A model generated the notes under the pieces. That model did not search any database. It was not told the origin of the DNA and was given only the letters and a program-made list of their open reading frames with translations. A stretch of 64,000 bases of DNA, taken from contig NZ_CP021780.1 of the NCBI RefSeq assembly GCF_002192415.1, forward strand, positions 2,356,001 to 2,420,000, in the 5' to 3' direction. Position numbers and translations under genes: made by a program. This DNA is from Paenibacillus donghaensis (GTDB taxonomy: Bacteria > Bacillota > Bacilli > Paenibacillales > Paenibacillaceae). Positions 3,117-58,230 of this stretch are shown here, in pieces; positions within the stretch are counted from its first letter, which is position 1; every line of letters begins with the position of its first letter.

Positions 3117-3590
3117 ATGGACCCTATTGCCAACATTAGCCAGCAATTTGCGGCACAAAAGTATAAATTAACCCCCCAGCGCCAGGCGATTGTGAAGGTG
3201 CTGCTAGATAACGAGAAGGATCATCTGAGTGTGGAGGAAGTCTACATGATGGTGAAGAACAGCTATCCCCATCTGGGTCTCGCCACAGTGTACCGCACCC
3301 TGGAGCTGCTCTGTGAGCTGCATATTGTGGAGAAAATGAACTTCGGAGACGGCGTATCACGTTATGATCTGCGTGGCGGTGATCACGAGCATATGCATCA
3401 TCACCTAATCTGCAGCGTATGCGGCAGGTTGGAGGAGATCAAGGAGGATTGGCTGCTGGATCTGGAGAAGCGGCTGGAGCGGGAGTATGGGTTCCAGGTC
3501 TCAGACCATCGGCTGGATTTCAAGGGGACGTATAACACCTGCCAGAAAACGTCCTGCAAGCGCGAAAAGGCCAACAAGGCCGTTTCGTAA
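3117..3590 (+). CDS. fur: Ferric uptake regulator, Fur family
   Basis: This cytoplasmic Fe(II)-responsive repressor binds 7-1-7 boxes (TGATAATNATTATCA). The sequence follows Bacillus Fur: winged helix with YKLTPQRQAIVKVLL, recognition region LGLATVYRTLELL, NFGDGVSRYDL, then the metal-binding HEHMHHHLICSVCG. The structural-zinc CxxC (CSVC) is present. The C-terminal cysteine pair is C-x4-C (TCQKTSC) rather than the usual CxxC. PerR and Zur are less likely given the GDGVSRYD segment typical of Fur. Probable targets in this window are the boxes at 12584, 22847, 23857, 54108 and 55083. Confidence 0.9.
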   Translation: MDPIANISQQFAAQKYKLTPQRQAIVKVLLDNEKDHLSVEEVYMMVKNSYPHLGLATVYRTLELLCELHIVEKMNFGDGVSRYDLRGGDHEHMHHHLICSVCGRLEEIKEDWLLDLEKRLEREYGFQVSDHRLDFKGTYNTCQKTSCKREKANKAVS

Positions 3591-4435: not shown

Positions 4436-5116
4436 CTATGGACGGCTGGGAATGAACGACCTCATCCATGTGCCGAAGCTGCCAGGGTTACGGCTCTGTA
4501 CCAGCACAACACCCTCCCCGCGGAAGCGGCAGACCAGCGCTTCGCCGCTCGTGAAGCTGTTCAACCAGCCGGACGCCGCTTTTTCCACCTTGTAATCCAT
4601 ATAATCCGGCCAGGCCACAAGATGCCCGTTATCGATAATCATCTCTTCGCCAGCCTCAAGGTTGATGGCGTGAATCGCTCCGAAGGAGGAGAGAAATACG
4701 GTTCCGCTGCCGCTGATCTCTATAATAAAGAACCCCTCCCCCGAGAAGAGGCCCCGGCTCAGATTCTGCATCTTGGTGTTGACCTGTATGCCTGAGCTGC
4801 CCGCCAGGAAACCGTCCTTCTGCACAAACAGCTTGTACGATCCGTCCAGCTCTACGGCCTGCACATCGCCCAACGATCCGGGAGACAGCAGAACCTCGCT
4901 TTGACCGCGTGTGGCTGTAAGCTCCTGGAAGAAGAACTTCTCACCGCTCAGCATTCTTCCCAGCCCGCGCATAATGCCGCCGTCCACCGTACCGCGCAGC
5001 TCCACATTCGGCGACATCGCCACCATTGCGCCCATTTCTGCCTTGACACTTTCCCCGGAATTCAGATAAACCTTCAACATAGCAAATGCGCCTTCATATA
5101 ATACTTCATATTTCAT
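4436..5116 (-). CDS. AIM24/TIGR00266 family protein
   Basis: Members of this family are beta-rich proteins of unknown biochemical role, named after a yeast mitochondrial protein. Visible family features are an early V-x-A-E-M-G-A-M-V strand turn, GGIMRGLGRMLSGEKFFF, GEGFFIIEISGSGTVFLSS and GHLVAWPDYMDYKVEKA. There is no signal peptide. The frame is open further upstream, but GGAGG at 5126-5130 gives a 9-nt spacer to the ATG at 5116 and only 3 nt to the ATG at 5122, so 5116 is chosen. Monocistronic. Confidence 0.85.
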   Translation of the reverse strand: MKYEVLYEGAFAMLKVYLNSGESVKAEMGAMVAMSPNVELRGTVDGGIMRGLGRMLSGEKFFFQELTATRGQSEVLLSPGSLGDVQAVELDGSYKLFVQKDGFLAGSSGIQVNTKMQNLSRGLFSGEGFFIIEISGSGTVFLSSFGAIHAINLEAGEEMIIDNGHLVAWPDYMDYKVEKAASGWLNSFTSGEALVCRFRGEGVVLVQSRNPGSFGTWMRSFIPSRP

Positions 5117-12527: not shown

Positions 12528-12598
12528 TTGACTTAAACCTACAAAACTAGATACAATATTACTTATTGCTAATCATCATTAAATGAGAATTATTATCA
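12528..12598 (+). promoter_or_regulatory. Promoter with Fur box
   Basis: TTGACT (12528) - 18 nt - TACAAT (12552-12557) is a sigma-A-like promoter. It is followed at 12584-12598 by TGAGAATTATTATCA, a 7-1-7 Fur box with one mismatch. The identical 15-mer lies at 54108. This predicts iron-repressed transcription of the OppD-like gene. Confidence 0.7.
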
Positions 12599-12628: not shown

Positions 12629-13696
12629 ATGGAGCGCCTTTTAGAGGTCAAAGATTTGGCAATTTCGTTCAGAACACGTGGTGGTGAAGTACAAGCGATC
12701 CGTGGTGTAAGCTTTCATGTGGACAAGGGTGAGACCCTTGCGATCGTAGGAGAATCCGGTTCCGGCAAAAGTGTAACTTCGCAGGCGGTAATGAAGCTGG
12801 TTCCCCAACCGATGGGCCATTACAAACGCGGCAAGATTATGTTTGACGGGCAGGAGCTGATCGCCAAAACCGAAAAGCAAATGCAGAAGATTCGCGGCAA
12901 GGAGATCGGTATGATCTTCCAGGACCCGATGACCTCGCTGAATCCGATGATGAAGGTCGGCAAACAGATTACCGAAGTATTGTTCAAGCATGAGGATATT
13001 TCCAAGGCGGATGCCTACAAACGCGGGATTGAGCTGCTCAATCTGGTGGGAATTCCTTCCCCTGAACGCCGTTTCCAGCAGTATCCGCATGAGTTCAGCG
13101 GCGGGATGCGTCAACGTGTGGTTATCGCCATGGCGCTTGCGGCCAACCCGAAGCTGCTGATTGCGGACGAGCCTACCACTGCGCTTGACGTAACGATCCA
13201 GGCTCAGATTCTTGATCTGATGAAGGATCTGCAGAAGAAAATTGACACCGCAATTATTTTCATTACCCATGATCTTGGCGTTGTAGCCCGCATGGCTGAC
13301 CGTGTAGCTGTAATGTATGCCGGACAGATTGTGGAAATGGGCACAGCTGCCGAAATTTTCTATGATCCAAGACATCCGTACACCTGGGGACTGCTGGCTT
13401 CGATGCCAAGTCTGGAGAGCAAAGGCTCCCAGCTTACGGCCATTCCGGGTACACCTCCCGATCTGATCAAGCCGCCTAAGGGCGATGCTTTTGCGCTCCG
13501 CAGCACCTATGCGATGCAGATCGATATGGAAAAAGAACCTCCTACCTACAAGGTATCGGATACACATCTGGTGAAATCCTGGCTGATGCACCCTATGGCA
13601 CCTGCAGTAGAGCCGCCGGATGTAGTTAAGAAGAGACGCCGCGTGCTGCCGAACGCTTATCCGGAGCCTGTATTGGTGGAGAATAACGAGTATTAA
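12629..13696 (+). CDS. OppD-like ABC transporter ATPase (orphan)
   Basis: This cytoplasmic ATPase belongs to the oligopeptide/dipeptide importer family. Walker A GESGSGKS (near residue 41), signature SGGMRQR, Walker B LLIADEPT and the H-loop ITHDLG are intact. The C-terminal oligopeptide-type extension starts with AIPGTPPDL. In that extension the four cysteine positions of DppD-type proteins read GDAF, LRS, QID and KSW, so no Fe-S ligands remain. I believe this is common in Bacillota OppD. Ribosome site GGAGAGGG. No permease, binding protein or OppF partner adjoins, and a terminator follows at once. A Fur box lies upstream. Confidence 0.85.
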   Translation: MERLLEVKDLAISFRTRGGEVQAIRGVSFHVDKGETLAIVGESGSGKSVTSQAVMKLVPQPMGHYKRGKIMFDGQELIAKTEKQMQKIRGKEIGMIFQDPMTSLNPMMKVGKQITEVLFKHEDISKADAYKRGIELLNLVGIPSPERRFQQYPHEFSGGMRQRVVIAMALAANPKLLIADEPTTALDVTIQAQILDLMKDLQKKIDTAIIFITHDLGVVARMADRVAVMYAGQIVEMGTAAEIFYDPRHPYTWGLLASMPSLESKGSQLTAIPGTPPDLIKPPKGDAFALRSTYAMQIDMEKEPPTYKVSDTHLVKSWLMHPMAPAVEPPDVVKKRRRVLPNAYPEPVLVENNEY

Positions 13697-22839: not shown

Positions 22840-22868
22840 TTGCAATTGATAACGATTATCAATAGAAT
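22840..22868 (+). promoter_or_regulatory. Fur-controlled promoter of the first AraC/binding-protein ORF
   Basis: TTGCAA (22840-22845) - 17 nt - TAGAAT (22863-22868). The Fur box TGATAACGATTATCA (22847-22861, one mismatch to the 7-1-7 consensus) fills the spacer exactly, so bound Fur would exclude RNA polymerase. Confidence 0.8.
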
Positions 22869-22921: not shown

Positions 22922-24916
22922 ATGGCGATGAACTTGCAGGAGCACATCCAATTGTGGAACCAGGCAACACTGAAGGTGCTTGATATCCGCCATAGGATTA
23001 TTCCGCCGGGGCAGGGTCTGCTTGCCTACCAGCTCCCATCCAGTGTTTTCTTGTACGGACTGCGGGGCAAGGCCAGAATCCGATTGGATGGCGTGGAGTA
23101 TTCCGCCGTACAAGGTTATCTCTGCCATGCGGGCAAAGGAGCCTATCTGGAAATCTCTGAAATTACAGAATCCTTTGAATATTATCTGATCTTCTACCGG
23201 GCGGTGCTGACAAAGCCTTGCCGTCAAGAGCTGCTGGTGATGCTGGAACGCAGCAAGCCATTCCAAGTTCAATACGGATTTACGCCTCAGCATCCTGCCT
23301 TGCTCTACCCCAAGCTTGATCAGATGCAGCGGGAATGGAGCAAGCCCGGCGCGATAGACAAGCTGCGTACCAAAACCATGTTCTATCAATTTCTGTGCGA
23401 ACTGCTGGAGCAGCTTGCTGCCCAGCAGGTGGCCACTGGACTTCCTGATCTATCCGTTCAAGCAATACGGTATATGGAGGAGCATTATGCGGAACCGATT
23501 ACGCTGGAAGCCATAGCGGACAGGCTCCTGTGCAGCCCCAGACAGCTGCAAAGACAGTTCAAATCCAAGCTGAGGTCCGGCCCCATTGACTACCTGCTCC
23601 AGCTTAGAATGGATAAAGCGAGGGAACTGCTGCTTCATACAGCTGCCCCGATCAAAGCGGTTTCGGAGGCTGTAGGATACACAGACAGCTATCATTTCAG
23701 CCGGATGTTCAAAAGAATAGTGGGCATTCCGCCCACCACCTACAGGCTGCAAGCTGCAGGGGCGGATATTGTACACGGTCGTCAGAATCCAGCCGGGCTG
23801 TCGTCATATGCCATTGCTGCGAAGGGAGGGGCCCGTTATATTGGTGTAAGTGATGATGAGAATGATTATCATCTACAAAGATATAATGGAGGGACCACAT
23901 CTATGTTCAGAAATTCAAGAGCAGGCTGGGCTGTCAGCCTGTTGCTCAGTCTTACTCTTATTCTGGCCGCATGCTCCGGCACACCGGCGGGCAGCGGGCC
24001 TTCCGGCAATGGCAGTTCGGAGAATAGGAATACCGTCGTGGTACAAACGGCTTCGCCGGCCAATACAGCTGAAGCTGCTAAGAGCAGCCCGCAAACGATC
24101 AAGCATATGAAAAGCGAACTGCTGCTGAAGCAGACCCCGGCCAAGATTGTAGTGCTGGATACGCAGTTTATTGATCAGATGGTGACGCTGGGCGGGCAGC
24201 CGACCGGCAGTGTGATTGTCACCAGCGATACTGCGGAGTTCCCGGATTTCCTGGCTGATCAATTGCAGGGCGTAACGGTGCTGGGCACCAAGGAAGAGCC
24301 TAACCTTGAAGCCATTGTTGGCCTTAGTCCCGATCTCATTATCTGCACTGAATTCTCGGAAGAAATCTATGAAGAACTGCAGAAAATCGCCCCTACTCTG
24401 ATGTTTGAACGTAATGAGGATTGGCGGATTACGCTGCAGAGCTTCGGACAAATTATGGGCAAGCAGCAGGAAGCGAAGCAGGTTCTGGATGAATATACCG
24501 ATAAGGTGAACACCCTAAGCCTGGCTTTGAAAGAGAAGCTGGGCAACAGCACGGTAGCTATGATCCGTCCCCGTGACGGCCAGGTCCGGCTGCATACAAC
24601 AGCCCACCGTACAGCGGCTATCCTCTATCAGGATCTGGGTCTGAATCCGCCGCCGATGGCGGTGGACGACACCGAAACAAGCCAGACTTTGTCACTTGAA
24701 ATATTGCCGGAGTTAAATGTTGACCATCTGTTTGTGCTTACTGATGACAAAACAATGAAGCTGACCGGGGAGTTTCAGGAAACCTCCATCTGGCAGAACC
24801 TAGAGGCTGTGAAGTCAGAGCAGGTGCATACTGTAAACACAACACTGTGGATTGCATATTACGGGCCGGTTGCGATGAGTCTGATCGTGGACCAGATATC
24901 GGAAGCCCTGCTGTAG
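22922..24916 (+). CDS. AraC-family regulator fused in frame to a siderophore-binding lipoprotein
   Basis: One 664-residue frame holds two proteins. Residues about 1-285 form an AraC regulator: cupin-like sensor (AYQLPSSVFLYGLRGKARIR), then a double helix-turn-helix ending AVGYTDSYHFSRMFKRIVGI and PPTTYRLQ. After a linker of about 40 residues comes MFRNSRAG, a signal sequence with lipobox LILAACSG, and a FecB/FeuA-type domain (KIVVLDTQFIDQMVTLG... NLEAIVGLSPDLIICTEFSE). No stop separates the halves. Bacillus Btr also joins AraC and FeuA-like domains, but its binding domain has no export signal. Start ATG 22922 follows GTAGGAGTG. A Fur-boxed promoter lies upstream and another inside. Confidence 0.85.
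   Translation: MAMNLQEHIQLWNQATLKVLDIRHRIIPPGQGLLAYQLPSSVFLYGLRGKARIRLDGVEYSAVQGYLCHAGKGAYLEISEITESFEYYLIFYRAVLTKPCRQELLVMLERSKPFQVQYGFTPQHPALLYPKLDQMQREWSKPGAIDKLRTKTMFYQFLCELLEQLAAQQVATGLPDLSVQAIRYMEEHYAEPITLEAIADRLLCSPRQLQRQFKSKLRSGPIDYLLQLRMDKARELLLHTAAPIKAVSEAVGYTDSYHFSRMFKRIVGIPPTTYRLQAAGADIVHGRQNPAGLSSYAIAAKGGARYIGVSDDENDYHLQRYNGGTTSMFRNSRAGWAVSLLLSLTLILAACSGTPAGSGPSGNGSSENRNTVVVQTASPANTAEAAKSSPQTIKHMKSELLLKQTPAKIVVLDTQFIDQMVTLGGQPTGSVIVTSDTAEFPDFLADQLQGVTVLGTKEEPNLEAIVGLSPDLIICTEFSEEIYEELQKIAPTLMFERNEDWRITLQSFGQIMGKQQEAKQVLDEYTDKVNTLSLALKEKLGNSTVAMIRPRDGQVRLHTTAHRTAAILYQDLGLNPPPMAVDDTETSQTLSLEILPELNVDHLFVLTDDKTMKLTGEFQETSIWQNLEAVKSEQVHTVNTTLWIAYYGPVAMSLIVDQISEALL
23814..23871 (+). promoter_or_regulatory. 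Intragenic promoter and Fur box in the AraC-lipoprotein linker
   Basis: TTGCTG (23814-23819) - 17 nt - TATATT (23837-23842), followed 14 nt later by the Fur box TGAGAATGATTATCA (23857-23871, one mismatch). It lies inside the reading frame, 32 bp before a ribosome site and internal ATG. The same arrangement recurs at 55043-55097. Confidence 0.7.
23903..24916 (+). CDS. Internal start: iron-siderophore-binding lipoprotein
   Basis: The ATG at 23903 is in frame with the 22922 ORF and has its own GGAGGG site (23888-23893, 9-nt spacer). Translation from here gives a normal 337-residue lipoprotein: basic n-region (MFRNSRAG), hydrophobic core, lipobox LAAC, a Ser/Gly/Asn-rich tether, then the two-lobed periplasmic-binding domain of ferric-siderophore systems. 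It would be tethered outside the membrane and deliver Fe-siderophore to a FecCD permease. No permease is adjacent, so it may share the one at 56229-58230. Separate expression is inferred from signals, not proven. Confidence 0.65.
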   Translation: MFRNSRAGWAVSLLLSLTLILAACSGTPAGSGPSGNGSSENRNTVVVQTASPANTAEAAKSSPQTIKHMKSELLLKQTPAKIVVLDTQFIDQMVTLGGQPTGSVIVTSDTAEFPDFLADQLQGVTVLGTKEEPNLEAIVGLSPDLIICTEFSEEIYEELQKIAPTLMFERNEDWRITLQSFGQIMGKQQEAKQVLDEYTDKVNTLSLALKEKLGNSTVAMIRPRDGQVRLHTTAHRTAAILYQDLGLNPPPMAVDDTETSQTLSLEILPELNVDHLFVLTDDKTMKLTGEFQETSIWQNLEAVKSEQVHTVNTTLWIAYYGPVAMSLIVDQISEALL

Positions 24917-24943
24917 CATCTATCAGAACGCCGCAGAACCAGA

Positions 24944-24977
24944 AACCGGCAAGCCATAAATAGGCTTGCCGGTTTTT
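24944..24977 (+). terminator. Intrinsic terminator
   Basis: AACCGGCAAGCC (24944-24955) pairs with GGCTTGCCGGTT (24963-24974), followed by T residues. Confidence 0.9.
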
Positions 24978-25159
24978 GGCATGCAGCTCAGGTGCAAGCT
25001 GCTTTTTCAAATATTAGAATATTTAGGAGCACGCTATATCAAATCCATCTATTACCTATGAAGTGTGCAGCTTTGTCCTTTGGAATTGCAGGATTCGCTG
25101 AGTCCGGCAATGGTTGTGAAATGCTCGGATACCCTGCCGTCCAGAGAATACCGGACCAT

Positions 25160-54100: not shown

Positions 54101-54130
54101 TTGCCACTGAGAATTATTATCACCTATAAT
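54101..54130 (+). promoter_or_regulatory. Fur-controlled promoter of the second AraC/binding-protein ORF
   Basis: TTGCCA (54101-54106) - 18 nt - TATAAT (54125-54130). The Fur box TGAGAATTATTATCA (54108-54122, one mismatch) lies inside the spacer, the same geometry as at 22840-22868. Confidence 0.82.
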
Positions 54131-54156: not shown

Positions 54157-56148
54157 GTGAGGGAAACGGTACAATTAACAGACCATTTAATGTTATGGAA
54201 TCATGCCTCTATCTTGGTTAAGGATGTGCGTCATGCGATGATGGAGATTGGAGAGCAATTCTCCTACCGTTTGCCTACTAGCGTGTTCCTCTATACGATC
54301 AAGGGCAATGCCCGCCTGAAGCTGGATGGGTCGGAGCATGCCGTCAGCGGCTTTCATGTGCTGCATGGAGGCAAGGGTGGGGTTCTTGATATTGTCGCCG
54401 AAAGTCTTTTCGAATATGTTCTGATCCTCTATAGAGCCCATTTACCGCTTCCGGGCCGCCGGGAACTGCTTCGAATGCTGGAGGCCAGCAATCCTTTTCA
54501 GATGCAATATGCATTCCATCCCCAGCACCCGCTGGTTCTATTCGATACCATAACCATGATGAACAAGGTCTGGCACCGGTCTAATTCCCTGGAGAAACTG
54601 CATGTCAAAATTATGTTCTATCAGTTTGTGGTAGAGGTGATGGGCCAGCTGTCAGAGGAGCGCATACATCCACAGAAGCCGGATCTGGCCGCGCAGGCCA
54701 TCCGTTACATACATGAGCATTACGATGAACAGATTACGCTTGCTAATTTGACAGAGATCCTTGACTGCAGTTCTAGACAGCTACTGAGGATGTTTAAGAG
54801 TAGGGAGAATACCAGCCCCATTGATTATCTGATCCGATTCCGCATGAACAAAGCTCAGGAACTGCTGCTCGGCACCGACGCTACACTCCAGGAAATTGCC
54901 CAGCGGGTAGGGTACGCAGACAGCTATTATTTCAGCAGATTGTTCAAAAAGGTGGTAGGCTTGTCTCCCTCCCGATTCAAGGATACTGTTCATAGCGCAC
55001 CCGGCCGTCGGGATAATCCATTCGATGTGTCGATATCCTCTATTGTTGATCAAAAGCTGCAACGGTATATTGATAGTGAATATGATAATCATTATCAATA
55101 TAAAAGGGGAGATTTACGAGTGTTCAAAAAGCAACGCACACCTATGACAGTTACCGTAATGATCGTTTTAATCTTGTTGATGAGCGCTTGTACAGCCGGA
55201 ACGGCTAACAATAAAACAGCCTCGAACGGGAATCCGGCAGCAGGCAGCAATTCGGCGGCAGTGGCAGCATCAGCAACACCTGCTGCAGCAAGCGACGGCG
55301 AAACACCTCGGATGGTGAAGCATGCGATGGGAGAAGAGGAACTGACAGGCACCCCGGCACGGGTTGTTATTCTGACGAACGAAGGAACCGAAGCGCTGCT
55401 GACTCTCGGCATCAAGCCCATTGGCGCGGTGCAATCCTGGGTGGGCGATCCGTGGTATGACCATATCAAGGATGAAATGCAGGATGTAACGGTGGTGGGG
55501 GATGAGCTACAGCCCAATATTGAGCTGATTGCCAGCCTGAAGCCGGATCTGATCATTGGCAACAAGGTCAGACAGGAGAAAATCTACGAGCAGCTGAAGC
55601 AGATTGCGCCTACCATTTTCTCGGACGATTTGGCCGGTGATTGGAAGATTAACTTCAAGCTGTATTCCGAAGCTGTGAACAAGCAGGCCGAAGGTGAGCA
55701 GGCTATGGCCGCCTTCGACAAGCGCGTTGCCGATGTCAGCGCCAAGCTGGGCAGCAAAGCGGAAACGAAGGTATCCATTGTACGTTTCTCGGCAGCGCAG
55801 GTACGGATTTATCAGAAGCAATCGTTCTCCGGCGTGCTGCTGGAGCAACTGGGGATAGCCCGTCCGGCCTCTCAGGATAAGGACAGCTTCATGGAGGTCA
55901 TGTCCAAAGAAACGATTCCAAGTATGGATGGCGATGTGCTCTTCTATTTCGTTACGGAAGCGGCAGGCAGCACAGAAGCGGCAGCGGTAGTTGAGGAGTG
56001 GAAGAATGATCCGCTGTTCAAGAATCTGAATGTCTCCAAGAATGACAAGGTCATTCAAGTGAACGAGGCCATCTGGAACACAGCCGGTGGTTATGAAGCG
56101 GCCAATCTGCTGCTGGATGAGCTGGTAGCCTATTTCGAAGTGGAGTAA
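54157..56148 (+). CDS. AraC-family regulator fused in frame to a siderophore-binding lipoprotein (second copy)
   Basis: This 663-residue frame is paralogous end to end with 22922-24916. AraC half: FSYRLPTSVFLYTIKGNARL, then LEKLHVKIMFYQFVVEVMGQ and the double helix-turn-helix ending RVGYADSYYFSRLFKKVVGL and SPSRFKD. The linker of about 50 residues is followed by VFKKQRTPMTVTV, lipobox LLMSACTAG and a FecB-type domain (RVVILTNEGTEALLTLGIKP, IELIASLKPDLIIGNKVRQE). Start GTG 54157 aligns with the paralogue's N-terminus, but its ribosome site (AAGAAGG) directly abuts it. The locus, with two permeases downstream, parallels Bacillus btr-feuABC. Confidence 0.85.
   Translation: MRETVQLTDHLMLWNHASILVKDVRHAMMEIGEQFSYRLPTSVFLYTIKGNARLKLDGSEHAVSGFHVLHGGKGGVLDIVAESLFEYVLILYRAHLPLPGRRELLRMLEASNPFQMQYAFHPQHPLVLFDTITMMNKVWHRSNSLEKLHVKIMFYQFVVEVMGQLSEERIHPQKPDLAAQAIRYIHEHYDEQITLANLTEILDCSSRQLLRMFKSRENTSPIDYLIRFRMNKAQELLLGTDATLQEIAQRVGYADSYYFSRLFKKVVGLSPSRFKDTVHSAPGRRDNPFDVSISSIVDQKLQRYIDSEYDNHYQYKRGDLRVFKKQRTPMTVTVMIVLILLMSACTAGTANNKTASNGNPAAGSNSAAVAASATPAAASDGETPRMVKHAMGEEELTGTPARVVILTNEGTEALLTLGIKPIGAVQSWVGDPWYDHIKDEMQDVTVVGDELQPNIELIASLKPDLIIGNKVRQEKIYEQLKQIAPTIFSDDLAGDWKINFKLYSEAVNKQAEGEQAMAAFDKRVADVSAKLGSKAETKVSIVRFSAAQVRIYQKQSFSGVLLEQLGIARPASQDKDSFMEVMSKETIPSMDGDVLFYFVTEAAGSTEAAAVVEEWKNDPLFKNLNVSKNDKVIQVNEAIWNTAGGYEAANLLLDELVAYFEVE
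55043..55097 (+). promoter_or_regulatory. Intragenic promoter and perfect Fur box
   Basis: TTGTTG (55043-55048) - 17 nt - TATATT (55066-55071), then the perfect 7-1-7 box TGATAATCATTATCA (55083-55097). It lies inside the 54157 frame, 23 bp before the lipoprotein start. Layout and promoter hexamers match 23814-23871. Confidence 0.75.
55120..56148 (+). CDS. Internal start: iron-siderophore-binding lipoprotein
   Basis: GTG 55120 is in frame with the 54157 ORF and follows AGGGGAG (55105-55111) by 8 nt. The 342-residue product has a basic n-region (VFKKQRTP), a hydrophobic core, lipobox MSAC, an Ala/Ser/Asn-rich tether and the two-lobed siderophore-binding fold. With the permeases at 56229 and 57232 it makes a FeuABC-like importer that lacks its own ATPase, as in Bacillus, where YusV is shared. 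Expression as a free lipoprotein is inferred from promoter, ribosome site and signal sequence together. Confidence 0.7.
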   Translation: MFKKQRTPMTVTVMIVLILLMSACTAGTANNKTASNGNPAAGSNSAAVAASATPAAASDGETPRMVKHAMGEEELTGTPARVVILTNEGTEALLTLGIKPIGAVQSWVGDPWYDHIKDEMQDVTVVGDELQPNIELIASLKPDLIIGNKVRQEKIYEQLKQIAPTIFSDDLAGDWKINFKLYSEAVNKQAEGEQAMAAFDKRVADVSAKLGSKAETKVSIVRFSAAQVRIYQKQSFSGVLLEQLGIARPASQDKDSFMEVMSKETIPSMDGDVLFYFVTEAAGSTEAAAVVEEWKNDPLFKNLNVSKNDKVIQVNEAIWNTAGGYEAANLLLDELVAYFEVE

Positions 56149-56159
56149 CTTATGAGGAC

Positions 56160-56206
56160 AAGGAGCAAGCTGAGCACCGCTACCCGGCGGCTTCAGCTTG
56201 CTCCTT
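56160..56206 (+). promoter_or_regulatory. Intercistronic stem-loop between binding-protein and permease genes
   Basis: Perfect 14-bp arms 56160-56173 and 56193-56206 around a 19-nt loop, without a following T run. It is placed where stem-loops often stabilise the upstream binding-protein mRNA and lower permease expression. Confidence 0.6.
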
Positions 56207-56228
56207 GCTATGGAAGGGATTAAGGCCG

Positions 56229-57239
56229 ATGAACGTAATGATTCGCAGCCGCAGCCGCAAGCTTGCGGGTTTGGCTGCTGGCATGATACTGCTGGCTGTA
56301 ATGATGCTGTCAAGCATCCTGTTTGGCCTCCAGCAGTTTGGAATACAAGAGTTGTGGCAGGCCTATGCTGCCTTTGACGGCTCGAACGAACATCTGATTC
56401 TGACGACTACCCGAGTGCCGAGGACTTTGATTGCCGCCGCTGTCGGAGCTTCGCTGGCCGTGGCGGGAACGCTGATGCAGGCGTTAACCCGGAATCCGCT
56501 GGCATCGCCCTCCCTGTTTGGCGTGAACTCCGGCGCTTCCCTGTTTATTGTGATCGGCATTGTTGCTTTTGGCCCATCGCTTACGCTTGGCAGCATGATC
56601 TGGATTGCCTTTGCCGGAGCGGCAATGACCTCTATGCTCGTATATGCGCTAGGCGCAGGTGGGCGGAGGGGATTTGAACCGGTAAGACTCACCTTGGCCG
56701 GGGCAGCTGTCGCCGCATTTGCCTCCTCTGTTACCTCAGGCCTGATTCTGATCAACAAGCAGTCCCTGGAATCTGCACTCTTCTGGATGATTGGCTCTGT
56801 CTCGGGCAGGAAGCTGGAGCACCTGCTGATTGTGGCTCCCTACATGGCAGCCGGACTGCTGTTGTCGCTGCTGCTCTCCGGCGCGCTGAACGTAATGGCG
56901 CTGGGTGAAGAAAGTGCGCGTGGATTGGGGCAGCGAATGCTGCTGCTGCGGGCATGGACTGCTCTGGCAGTGGTCCTGCTGGCCGGGAGTGCTGTAGCTG
57001 CGGCAGGACCAATTGCTTTTGTCGGGCTGGTCATTCCCCATCTGTGCAGGTCGCTCGTCGGCAATAATCACCGCTGGCTGCTGCCTTATTGCGCGCTGAC
57101 CGGCGCATTGCTGCTGGTCAGCGCCGACTTGGCTTCCCGGTTTGTTCTCATGCCGAAGGAAATTCCGGTTGGTGTGGCAACAGCCTTAATCGGTGTGCCC
57201 TTCCTGATCTATATCGCAAGGAGGGGCAGATATGAATAA
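56229..57239 (+). CDS. FecCD-family iron-siderophore ABC permease
   Basis: This 336-residue permease has about nine or ten transmembrane helices. FecCD hallmarks are RVPRTLIAAAVGASLAVAGT, LMQALTRNPLASPSLFGVNS, LTLAGAAVAAFASSVTSGLI, the ATPase-contact LGEESARGLGQRM, and GPIAFVGLVIPHLCRSLVGN. AAGGGAT precedes ATG 56229; the open frame from 56205 overlaps the intercistronic stem-loop and lacks a site. Partner of the next gene; the ATPase must come from elsewhere in the genome. Confidence 0.9.
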   Translation: MNVMIRSRSRKLAGLAAGMILLAVMMLSSILFGLQQFGIQELWQAYAAFDGSNEHLILTTTRVPRTLIAAAVGASLAVAGTLMQALTRNPLASPSLFGVNSGASLFIVIGIVAFGPSLTLGSMIWIAFAGAAMTSMLVYALGAGGRRGFEPVRLTLAGAAVAAFASSVTSGLILINKQSLESALFWMIGSVSGRKLEHLLIVAPYMAAGLLLSLLLSGALNVMALGEESARGLGQRMLLLRAWTALAVVLLAGSAVAAAGPIAFVGLVIPHLCRSLVGNNHRWLLPYCALTGALLLVSADLASRFVLMPKEIPVGVATALIGVPFLIYIARRGRYE

Positions 57240-58230
57240 GCAGCGAAGAGGGCGACCTGTAATACTGCTGCTGACACTCGCAGCGCTAACGATAGGTTTA
57301 AGCCTAGTATGTTTGTCCGTTGGGTCGGTGAGCGTACCCGTGAAGGAAGTTATATCTGCTTTACTCGGACTCCATCCGCAGAGCAGTGAGTTGATTGTAA
57401 TGCAGCTGCGGCTGCCGCGGGTGCTGGCTGCCCTGCTGGTCGGCGCGGCTCTGGCCGTTGCAGGCACCTTACTGCAGGGCGTTATCCGCAACCCGCTCGC
57501 TTCACCGGACCTGCTCGGCGTCTCCGGCGGCGCTTCGGTGGCGGTGGTTGCTTTTATGATGTTGGTGACCGGCTCCAGTGTCCACTGGGTTCCGGTCATT
57601 GCGATTGGCGGAGCTTGTATAACCGCATTGATTAATTACACACTGGCTTGGAAACATGGAGTCTCTCCTTATCGCCTGGTGCTGATTGGGCTGGGAATAT
57701 CCACCGCTACCGGCGCATTGACCATGTTCTTGTTGATCAGCGGACCGGCTTATCTGGCTGCCCAGGTGCTGAACTGGATGACGGGCAGTGTATATGGAAC
57801 CAACTGGACTTATATTCAGGCGCTCTGGCCATGGATGGTCGGGATCATTCCTTTATCGATGTTCTACGCCAGAGAGTTGAACATTCAGGCTTTGGGTGAA
57901 GGGACCGCTATCGGACTTGGCAGCAGGCTGCAGATCAGCAGGGCGGTCGTGCTGTTCTTCAGCGTTGCACTGGCAGGTGCGGCCGTGGGAGTAGCTGGTA
58001 CGCTGTCTTTCATCGGCCTGCTGGCCCCGCATATCGGCAGGAGGATTGCCGGACATTCCTACACGCTGCTTATACCGGTGTCCGCCTGTCTGGGGGCGAT
58101 TATTCTGCTGCTGGCGGATCTGGCCGGACGTATGCTGTTTCAGCCGCTTGACATTCCGGCAGGGGTATTCACGGCAGGAGTAGGGGCTCCGTTTTTTATG
58201 TTTCTGTTGTTCCGGGGCAAACGAGACTAA
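57232..58230 (+). CDS. FecCD-family iron-siderophore ABC permease, second subunit
   Basis: This 332-residue permease is a paralogue of the preceding gene: LRLPRVLAALLVGAALAVAG, TLLQGVIRNPLASPDLLGVS, YRLVLIGLGISTATGALTMF, LNIQALGEGTAIGLGSRL and GTLSFIGLLAPHIGRRIAG. Its ATG overlaps the stop of the first permease by 8 bp, so the two subunits are probably made in equal amounts. It ends the Fur-controlled import operon. Confidence 0.9.
   Translation: MNKQRRGRPVILLLTLAALTIGLSLVCLSVGSVSVPVKEVISALLGLHPQSSELIVMQLRLPRVLAALLVGAALAVAGTLLQGVIRNPLASPDLLGVSGGASVAVVAFMMLVTGSSVHWVPVIAIGGACITALINYTLAWKHGVSPYRLVLIGLGISTATGALTMFLLISGPAYLAAQVLNWMTGSVYGTNWTYIQALWPWMVGIIPLSMFYARELNIQALGEGTAIGLGSRLQISRAVVLFFSVALAGAAVGVAGTLSFIGLLAPHIGRRIAGHSYTLLIPVSACLGAIILLLADLAGRMLFQPLDIPAGVFTAGVGAPFFMFLLFRGKRD

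What the first reader, a model, noticed from the sequence alone, without database searches (positions are those of the whole stretch)
22922..24916. One reading frame, two proteins: AraC regulator joined to an export-competent siderophore-binding lipoprotein
The frame runs without a stop from a complete AraC regulator into a complete lipoprotein with its own GGAGGG site, ATG, signal peptide and lipobox. A paralogue at 54157-56148 keeps the same design, so it is not a chance loss of a stop codon. Either the lipoprotein is also made alone (nested gene), or the full-length chain inserts in the membrane with the DNA-binding part inside and the siderophore sensor outside. That would be a one-chain transmembrane iron regulator. 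Bacillus Btr has related domains but keeps its binding domain in the cytoplasm.
Basis: partly seen in the sequence, partly recalled or inferred. Interest (0 to 1): 0.85.

Follow-up and report, generated by a model that had tools for sequence, protein, structure and literature searches.

The report
Regulator gene hiding a lipoprotein gene
One bacterial gene appears to encode both an iron-uptake regulator and, from a hidden switch inside it, a separate iron-scavenging surface lipoprotein, so one stretch of DNA seems to be protein code and control region at once.

Summary
22922-24916 is one open frame: AraC regulator, then siderophore-binding lipoprotein. The paralogue 54157-56148 is built alike.

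The coding linker is, by sequence, also a control region: a 22-bp direct repeat (likely AraC operator), a promoter (TTG, 17 bp, TATANT), a Fur box, a Shine-Dalgarno site and a start codon. Of 218 fused frames examined, all 179 with a lipobox have an in-phase Fur box. Codon choice there exceeds what the amino acids require. The 22-bp period is not a multiple of 3, so a protein repeat cannot cause it.

Best reading: two products. A 74-kDa AraC-binding-protein chain is the regulator; a 37-kDa lipoprotein comes from a Fur-repressed, AraC-activated promoter inside the same gene. The frame is open in fusions but closed in 20 of 20 lone-lipoprotein controls. Distant relatives have two genes. A soluble Btr-like regulator branches inside the nested clade.

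No expression data were available.

The parts
22847..22861 (+). Fur box upstream of the long form (TGATAACGATTATCA, 13 of 14)
   Evidence: in 108 of 134 loci a score >=11 upstream of AraC vs 9 of 134 control stretches inside AraC
22922..24916 (+). Long form: AraC regulator - linker - siderophore-binding domain, 664 aa, 74 kDa
23513..23746 (+). AraC-type DNA-binding domain (HTH_18, residues 198-275)
23778..23792 (+). Operator-like half-site 1 of the 22-bp direct repeat (GTCGTCAGAATCCAG)
   Evidence: repeat test; AraC binding inferred
23800..23814 (+). Operator-like half-site 2 (GTCGTCATATGCCAT), abutting the -35
   Evidence: AraC binding inferred
23814..23819 (+). -35 element TTGCTG of internal promoter
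   Evidence: not called by the generic scanner
23837..23842 (+). -10 element TATATT, 17-bp spacer
23857..23871 (+). Internal Fur box TGAGAATGATTATCA (13 of 14), read in frame as ENDYH
23888..23893 (+). Shine-Dalgarno GGAGGG of the short form
   Evidence: family-wide SD energy test
23903..24916 (+). Short form (nested gene): siderophore-binding lipoprotein, 337 aa, 36.8 kDa
23903..23974 (+). Lipoprotein signal peptide and lipobox LAAC (Cys codon 23972-23974)
   Evidence: signal peptide pN/pS 0.18
24212..24832 (+). Siderophore-binding domain (Peripla_BP_2, residues 431-637); nearest fold YfiY 3tny
54108..54122 (+). Paralogue: Fur box upstream of long form (TGAGAATTATTATCA)
54157..56148 (+). Paralogue long form, 663 aa, 74.4 kDa
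55007..55043 (+). Paralogue: 22-bp direct repeat (half-sites 55007-55021 and 55029-55043)
   Evidence: AraC binding inferred
55043..55071 (+). Paralogue: internal promoter TTGTTG - 17 bp - TATATT
55083..55097 (+). Paralogue: internal Fur box TGATAATCATTATCA (14 of 14), read as DNHYQ
55102..55112 (+). Paralogue: SD AAAAGGGGAGA
55120..56148 (+). Paralogue short form (nested lipoprotein gene, GTG start, 342 aa, 37 kDa; Cys 55189-55191)
56205..58230 (+). FecC- and FecD-type permease genes after the paralogue (frames 56205-57239 and 57232-58230, first possible starts)
   Evidence: named by reading and used as queries, not tested against a family library; no other binding-protein frame lies between

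Best explanation
The reading frame yields two proteins. (1) The long form (74 kDa), transcribed from a Fur-repressed promoter upstream, is the regulator: an AraC DNA-binding half whose C-terminal siderophore-binding domain serves as sensor, as in Btr. (2) The short form (37 kDa) is the exported binding lipoprotein, transcribed and translated from signals inside the coding linker: a 22-bp direct repeat that the gene's own AraC half most likely binds, a -35/-10 promoter directly abutting it, a Fur box over the start region, a Shine-Dalgarno site and ATG. Proposed working: iron shortage removes Fur from both promoters; a little long form is made; loaded with its ferric siderophore it binds the repeat in its own gene and switches on the lipoprotein (and downstream permeases where present). 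The operator lies downstream of the long form's own promoter, so the loop should amplify the lipoprotein and not the regulator. Shown by sequence and selection: the internal signals and the open frame. Inferred: AraC and Fur binding, sensor role, presence of both proteins. Membrane insertion of the long form is left open.
For: Fur box in the linker of 179 of 179 lipobox fusions, always the same codon phase. Fur-box codons far from ORF-wide usage: GAT 89 of 89, AAT 126 of 130, CAT 91 of 91, TAT 123 of 123, vs 67, 67, 77, 68%. Strict promoter next to it in 89 of 134, vs 8.8% of synonymous shuffles and 5 of 3537 other windows; SD energy at the lipoprotein start median -8.6 vs -2.5 at 5018 other in-frame start codons. 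Synonymous divergence falls to 0.159 in the promoter part and 0.048 in the Fur box vs 0.356 in AraC (53 pairs). 22-bp direct repeat: 9.31 of 15 identical vs 2.88-4.65 at the other offsets from 12 to 32 and 5.10 in synonymous shuffles; half-sites covary within a locus (0 of 2000 permutations); repeat similarity tracks DNA-binding-domain similarity (r 0.746; partial 0.641, spacer control 0.345). No copy upstream of AraC. A pattern for this clade's operator, 3 mismatches allowed, has two hits in the 8.5-Mb genome, both in the window's two linkers. Frame open in 185 of 185 fusions but closed in 20 of 20 lone-lipoprotein controls, whose Fur-box phases are mixed. Soluble AraC-SBP regulators beside separate lipoproteins keep the binding domain.
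Against: No transcript, ribosome or protein data. The generic promoter scan does not call the internal promoter, and the strict promoter is missing in 51 of 185 loci. The SD test against synonymous shuffles is weak (4.82 vs 4.58); the SD energy test took the best-pairing start codon in its stretch, which favours it. The GTCG-type operator consensus, derived from these same loci, scores below 13 of 22 in 31 of 185. pN/pS in the linker is 0.51-0.66, against 0.26 in AraC and 0.12 in the binding domain, so protein-level constraint on the linker is weak. L196 has a frameshift between the halves and L006 a TAG in the AraC part, so the long form can be lost. L324 is an exported-type fusion without Fur box. 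Loci are related, so counts are not independent. Fusions are defined by one frame holding both domains and were mostly found with a full-length query.
Confidence: 0.72

Rival explanations
1. Only the short form and an AraC protein matter: the frame is open by history, and the read-through long form has no function of its own.
For: Distant relatives are two separate genes, some with a Fur-box-like site between them. L196 is split, with the AraC frame and the lipoprotein frame each unbroken. The linker is predicted disordered and its pN/pS is 0.51-0.66.
Against: 185 of 185 fusions open vs 20 of 20 lone-lipoprotein controls closed, though fusions are in frame by definition; 78 of 80 strong hits of the AraC-only query are in fused frames. 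When the lipoprotein is encoded separately, the AraC protein still carries its own binding domain without signal peptide.
Confidence: 0.14
2. One chain only: the full-length protein sits in the membrane, DNA-binding half inside and siderophore sensor outside, a ToxR-like one-component receptor; no separate lipoprotein is made.
For: One hydrophobic helix (model residues 331-348, pLDDT 63-67) between the two well-predicted halves. The open frame itself.
Against: Internal promoter, Fur box and start signals under DNA-level selection. The paralogue precedes FecCD-type permeases with no other binding-protein frame between. The lipobox Cys is nearly invariant (90% or more of 59 aligned proteins), which a mere anchor would not need.
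Confidence: 0.05
3. One primary product, two by processing: the long form is inserted, lipidated at the internal Cys and cleaved by signal peptidase II, freeing AraC half and lipoprotein.
For: Intact lipobox inside the long form.
Against: Does not explain the internal control region. The stop in L006 and the frameshift in L196 leave the lipoprotein part unbroken.
Confidence: 0.06

Closest known systems
Btr (bacillibactin transport regulator, NCBIfam NF049932)
   Same: AraC DNA-binding part followed by a Peripla_BP_2 domain in one chain; the two window proteins score 124.3 and 116 bits with the Btr model.
   Different: Curated cut-off 900 bits not reached. Btr-type (signal-less) loci here lack signal peptide and internal promoter, and all but L214 lack the linker Fur box; those inspected sit beside a separate lipoprotein gene.
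Siderophore-binding lipoproteins of the YfiY/SirA/FeuA kind
   Same: PF01497, lipobox, fold (3tny: TM 0.90 on the target).
   Different: Here the gene lies wholly inside, and in frame with, a regulator gene.
In-frame genes-within-genes such as Rpn (PMC10327210; start of abstract and passages seen)
   Same: A short C-terminal product translated from an internal start; that paper's Fig. 1 legend also marks an internal promoter.
   Different: Here the coding linker also appears to carry a Fur box and the binding site of the protein it belongs to; the products are a regulator and an exported lipoprotein.
HTH_18 + Peripla_BP_2 proteins counted in PMC13293324 (section 22 and passages read)
   Same: That survey lists 229 of 6,023 Peripla_BP_2 genes in siderophore clusters with a second domain, 98.7% of them HTH_18.
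   Different: In the parts read, no analysis of linker, nesting or internal promoter; 'AraC', 'fused' and 'intragenic' do not occur in its main text.
ToxR/CadC-type transmembrane one-component regulators (recalled)
   Same: DNA-binding part, single hydrophobic segment, outer sensor would be the same layout if the long form inserts.
   Different: AraC instead of winged helix; segment is a lipoprotein signal peptide; topology untested.

Membership tests
Btr (NF049932) | Curated family score (900 bits) | tested here: not met
   124.3 and 116 bits
Btr (NF049932) | AraC part followed by Peripla_BP_2 in one chain | tested here: met
Btr (NF049932) | No export signal between the domains (cytoplasmic sensor; recalled for Btr) | tested here: not met
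   signal peptide and lipobox in both window genes
AraC/XylS regulators | HTH_18 / HTH_AraC above Pfam cut-off | tested here: met
   84.3 vs 33.6 bits; 47.3 vs 26.6 bits
AraC/XylS regulators | Cupin-like N-terminal domain | tested here: inconclusive
   confident beta-rich model of residues 13-118; no Pfam match to residues 1-148
AraC/XylS regulators | Binds a direct-repeat operator next to the -35 of its target (recalled habit) | tested here: inconclusive
   22-bp repeat abutting the -35 found by sequence; binding not tested
Siderophore-binding lipoprotein | Peripla_BP_2 above cut-off, signal peptide, lipobox Cys | tested here: met
   85.8 vs 27.5 bits; lipobox
In-frame nested gene | Internal start with ribosome site and own promoter | tested here: met
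   by sequence and selection only
In-frame nested gene | Two separate protein products | not testable with these tools
   needs western blot or ribosome profiling
Transmembrane one-component regulator | DNA-binding half inside, sensor outside in one chain | not testable with these tools
   one hydrophobic helix predicted; topology and stability unknown

The most novel reading that the evidence does not exclude
A transcription factor whose own coding sequence contains its operator, the promoter it controls and a Fur site, and whose full-length form is moreover a membrane-spanning siderophore receptor (DNA-binding half inside, lipobox-anchored sensor outside) that on binding its siderophore switches on the lipoprotein nested in its own gene.
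Probability: 0.3. Interest if true: 0.92.

Novelty: new variant of a known kind. Interest (0 to 1): 0.82.

Why it matters
Among the public names listed these genes are mostly called 'AraC family transcriptional regulator' or 'substrate-binding protein', so in each the other product, and the internal promoter, is overlooked. If true, one stretch of DNA is protein code, operator, promoter and Fur site at once, and is kept so in at least six families of one class. It gives many natural regulator-operator pairs in one molecule, at least one clade where a nested gene seems to have gone back to two genes, and a clear hypothesis for how Paenibacillus runs many private siderophore-uptake loops.

Tried and rejected
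A second TATAAT at about 23882 beside the SD: rejected as -10, because transcripts from it would start after the SD (reading). Operator upstream of the AraC gene: searched, not found. I first took the repeat period as 21 bp; that shuffle test was negative and the scan over offsets showed 22. The anchor at the -35 was chosen after seeing the alignment. The SD test by synonymous shuffles was weak and was followed by an energy test at start codons. Fixed FecCD operon: only 15 of 62 loci with at least 700 nt downstream have FecCD there. Ten literature searches listed no paper that I recognised as describing this nested design; of the papers listed I opened two. Only open-licence PMC papers are in that library. 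Not every match was fetched: two full-length matches listed (G037:C183, G049:C1) and most of those were left out. Of 23 loci given to the lone-lipoprotein test, 20 passed its coordinate filter; L196, a frameshifted pair, is one of the 20. Six of the 185 exported-type loci (L220-L223, L225, L243) were admitted by Fur score because my lipobox pattern missed them; the 179 were not. L214 was set aside from the 185. Some of the 185 frames are broken outside the linker (L006, L073, L107, L245) or cut by the locus end (second frames of L252, L254, L257). The stricter hydrophobicity rule calls L123, L243, L266, L299 and L330 signal-less, whereas the lipobox patterns pass L123, L299 and L330. L312 was misclassed as exported. 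The model's pTM is 0.47, so the relative placement of the halves is not used.
Full report
What is in the window. The frame 22922-24916 is open from an AraC-type regulator into a siderophore-binding lipoprotein, and 54157-56148 repeats the design. The own genome (8.54 Mb, one contig) holds six full-length copies; one (L006) has a TAG in its AraC part but keeps linker and lipoprotein open. It also holds a shorter, signal-less AraC-SBP gene next to a lone lipoprotein (L008/L009, L005).

How widespread. Full-length queries found matches (fused genes or lone lipoproteins) in 49 of 100 genomes of the genus at E<=1e-60, 150 of 295 of the family at 1e-55, 117 of 246 of the order at 1e-45 and 69 of 398 of the class at 1e-40; these samples overlap. 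Part of the matches was fetched. From these searches and I examined 218 fused frames. 179 have a lipobox; 6 more (L220-L223, L225, L243) have a similar stretch without a canonical lipobox and were admitted by Fur score. The 185 come from 111 genomes, 18 genera and 6 families. A named set of 80 loci, in part the same genes, gave 65 exported-type frames, 63 of them with the in-phase Fur box. Of the other two, L312 is misclassed. L324 (Scatolibacter) has no Fur box, though its linker has a 22-bp repeat of 12 of 15. Names in public sources are mostly 'AraC family transcriptional regulator' or 'ABC transporter substrate-binding protein'.

The linker is a control region. A Fur box (14 scored positions of a recalled 7-1-7 consensus) with 11-14 matches lies in the linker of all 179 lipobox fusions, always in the codon phase that reads D-N-H-Y-Q or variants. 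Its codons are nearly invariant although the same residues use the alternative codon in 23-33% of cases over the whole genes. Just upstream lies TTGNNN - 17 bp - TATANT: 89 of 134 unique linkers, none with 16 or 18 bp, against 8.8% of synonymous shuffles and 5 of 3537 other windows; in the full set 134 of 185. All 134 linkers have an ATG (110), GTG (17) or TTG (7) before the signal peptide with strong SD pairing (99% at -6 kcal/mol or better, vs 12% of 5018 other in-frame start codons); the best-pairing start codon of the stretch was taken, which favours this test. In 53 close pairs synonymous divergence is 0.356 in AraC and 0.367 in the binding domain, but 0.159 in the promoter stretch and 0.048 in the Fur box. 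Upstream of the AraC start a Fur box of 11 or more is found in 108 of 134, against 9 of 134 control stretches. The generic scan lists a weak promoter-like site at 22840-22868 around that upstream Fur box in the window, no more sites than chance gives, and does not list the internal promoter.

The operator. Anchored on the -35, the linker shows a tandem element, GTCGnnATAATCCAT then GTCGnnATATCCAT in the clade of the window genes, directly abutting the -35. The same element stands before the lone lipoprotein genes L127, L131, L214 and L215, where the frame is closed within 75 nt upstream of the Fur box. Over 74 linker clusters (under 80% identity, strict promoter present; 98 clusters in all) the repeat peaks sharply at 22 bp: 9.31 of 15 identical, against 2.88 to 4.65 at the other offsets from 12 to 32. 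Synonymous shuffles give 5.10, and partners within a locus match better than across loci (9.31 vs 7.41; 0 of 2000 permutations). As 22 is not a multiple of 3, a protein repeat cannot cause it. Similarity of the element follows similarity of the DNA-binding domain (r 0.746, partial 0.641 given the binding domain; spacer control 0.345). Upstream of the AraC start there is no copy (own 14.70, unrelated 14.65 of 30). In the own genome a pattern written for this clade, 3 mismatches allowed, has two hits, both in the window's two linkers, and none for the reversed control; the other four fused copies carry other variants, so this test speaks for the window pair only. That the AraC half binds the element is inference from these facts and from the known habit of AraC activators to bind direct repeats next to the -35 (recalled).

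Is the long form real? The distance from HTH end to the inner start takes 14 values, in frame by definition of the set. The frame is open in 185 of 185 fusions and closed in 20 of 20 lone-lipoprotein controls within 75 nt upstream of the Fur box (18 of 20 within 60 nt), where Fur-box phases are 9, 9 and 2. Fusions were largely found with a full-length query; the AraC-only query lessens that bias (78 of 80 strong hits in fused frames, two of them with a stop in the AraC part). The linker's pN/pS of 0.51-0.66 shows only weak protein-level constraint and is confounded by the DNA-level one. The best argument is that regulators beside a separate lipoprotein still carry their own binding domain, without signal peptide. 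33 signal-less frames stand among the 218, with Fur scores of 9 or lower in all but L214; some genes count two or three times there through overlapping loci, and some are less related AraC-SBP genes of the own genome.

History. Distant relatives have two genes, AraC then lipoprotein, with a Fur-box-like site between them in L336, L337 and L339; in L339 the AraC frame ends in SRNNPS inside the operator-like stretch. In a tree of 150 AraC parts seven such rows (from L329, L334, L337, L339, L340) form one clade (100%) at an unresolved basal fork shared with a few nested rows; the root is a midpoint, so that two genes came first is plausible but not shown. The soluble forms L127, L131, L215 and L286, with L214 as their sister, lie inside the clade of locus 1 (98% and 96% SH-aLRT). 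L214 lacks the signal peptide but keeps a 13-of-14 Fur box in its coding linker and has a lone lipoprotein gene behind it. L266 is a second signal-loss case with promoter and Fur box still present. So a nested gene seems able to return to a two-gene state. The tree is a quick one with LG+G4, and 44 of 147 inner branches are weak.

Structure and ligand. The model (59 sequences, mean pLDDT 85.3, pTM 0.47; its residue numbers are 2 lower than the frame's) has a beta-rich N-terminal domain, the HTH domain, a disordered linker (283-332), one helix (331-348), a disordered stretch and the binding fold. The binding fold is nearest YfiY with schizokinen (TM 0.90 on target) and SirA with staphyloferrin B (0.83), which suggests, and no more, a carboxylate or mixed citrate siderophore (ligand chemistry recalled).

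Verdict. Nested in-frame genes with internal promoters are known (Rpn), and AraC-SBP regulators are known (Btr, NCBIfam), so I file it as a new variant of a known kind. In the ten searches of open-licence papers I found no description of it. All claims are from sequence; none was tested at the bench.

Noticed in passing
window 56156-56210: Very stable hairpin (region 56140-56235 folds at -40.4 kcal/mol, z -4.04) between the paralogue's lipoprotein stop and the likely FecC start; may set the ratio of binding protein to permease.
   Followed up: partly
window 24938-24978: Strong terminator-like hairpin after locus 1 (region folds at -35.8 kcal/mol, z -7.68), so locus 1 probably is a single-gene unit.
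   Followed up: partly
L006 (own genome, 2872327-2874252): A fused copy with an in-frame TAG in the AraC part while linker signals and lipoprotein stay open.
   Followed up: partly
L196 1001-2925: Family member split by a frameshift after the Fur box; the AraC stop overlaps the lipoprotein ATG as ATGA.
   Followed up: yes
L324 3815-3860 (Scatolibacter): Exported-type fusion from outside Bacilli without Fur box but with a 22-bp direct repeat (12 of 15) in its linker; perhaps the same design under another master regulator.
   Followed up: no
L220-L223, L225, L243: Copies with in-phase Fur box whose signal-like stretch has an odd (LSVC) or missing lipobox; the binding protein may be secreted and not lipid-anchored.
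   Followed up: no
L005 and L209, upstream of the lone lipoprotein: Two TGTCGCA elements 22 bp apart before the Fur box, perhaps the operator of the neighbouring soluble Btr-type regulator (seen by eye).
   Followed up: no
window 12584-12598: Fur-box-like TGAGAATTATTATCA just before the frame at 12629, which reads as an ABC-transporter ATPase; a Fur-family protein seems encoded at 3117-3590 (both named by eye).
   Followed up: no
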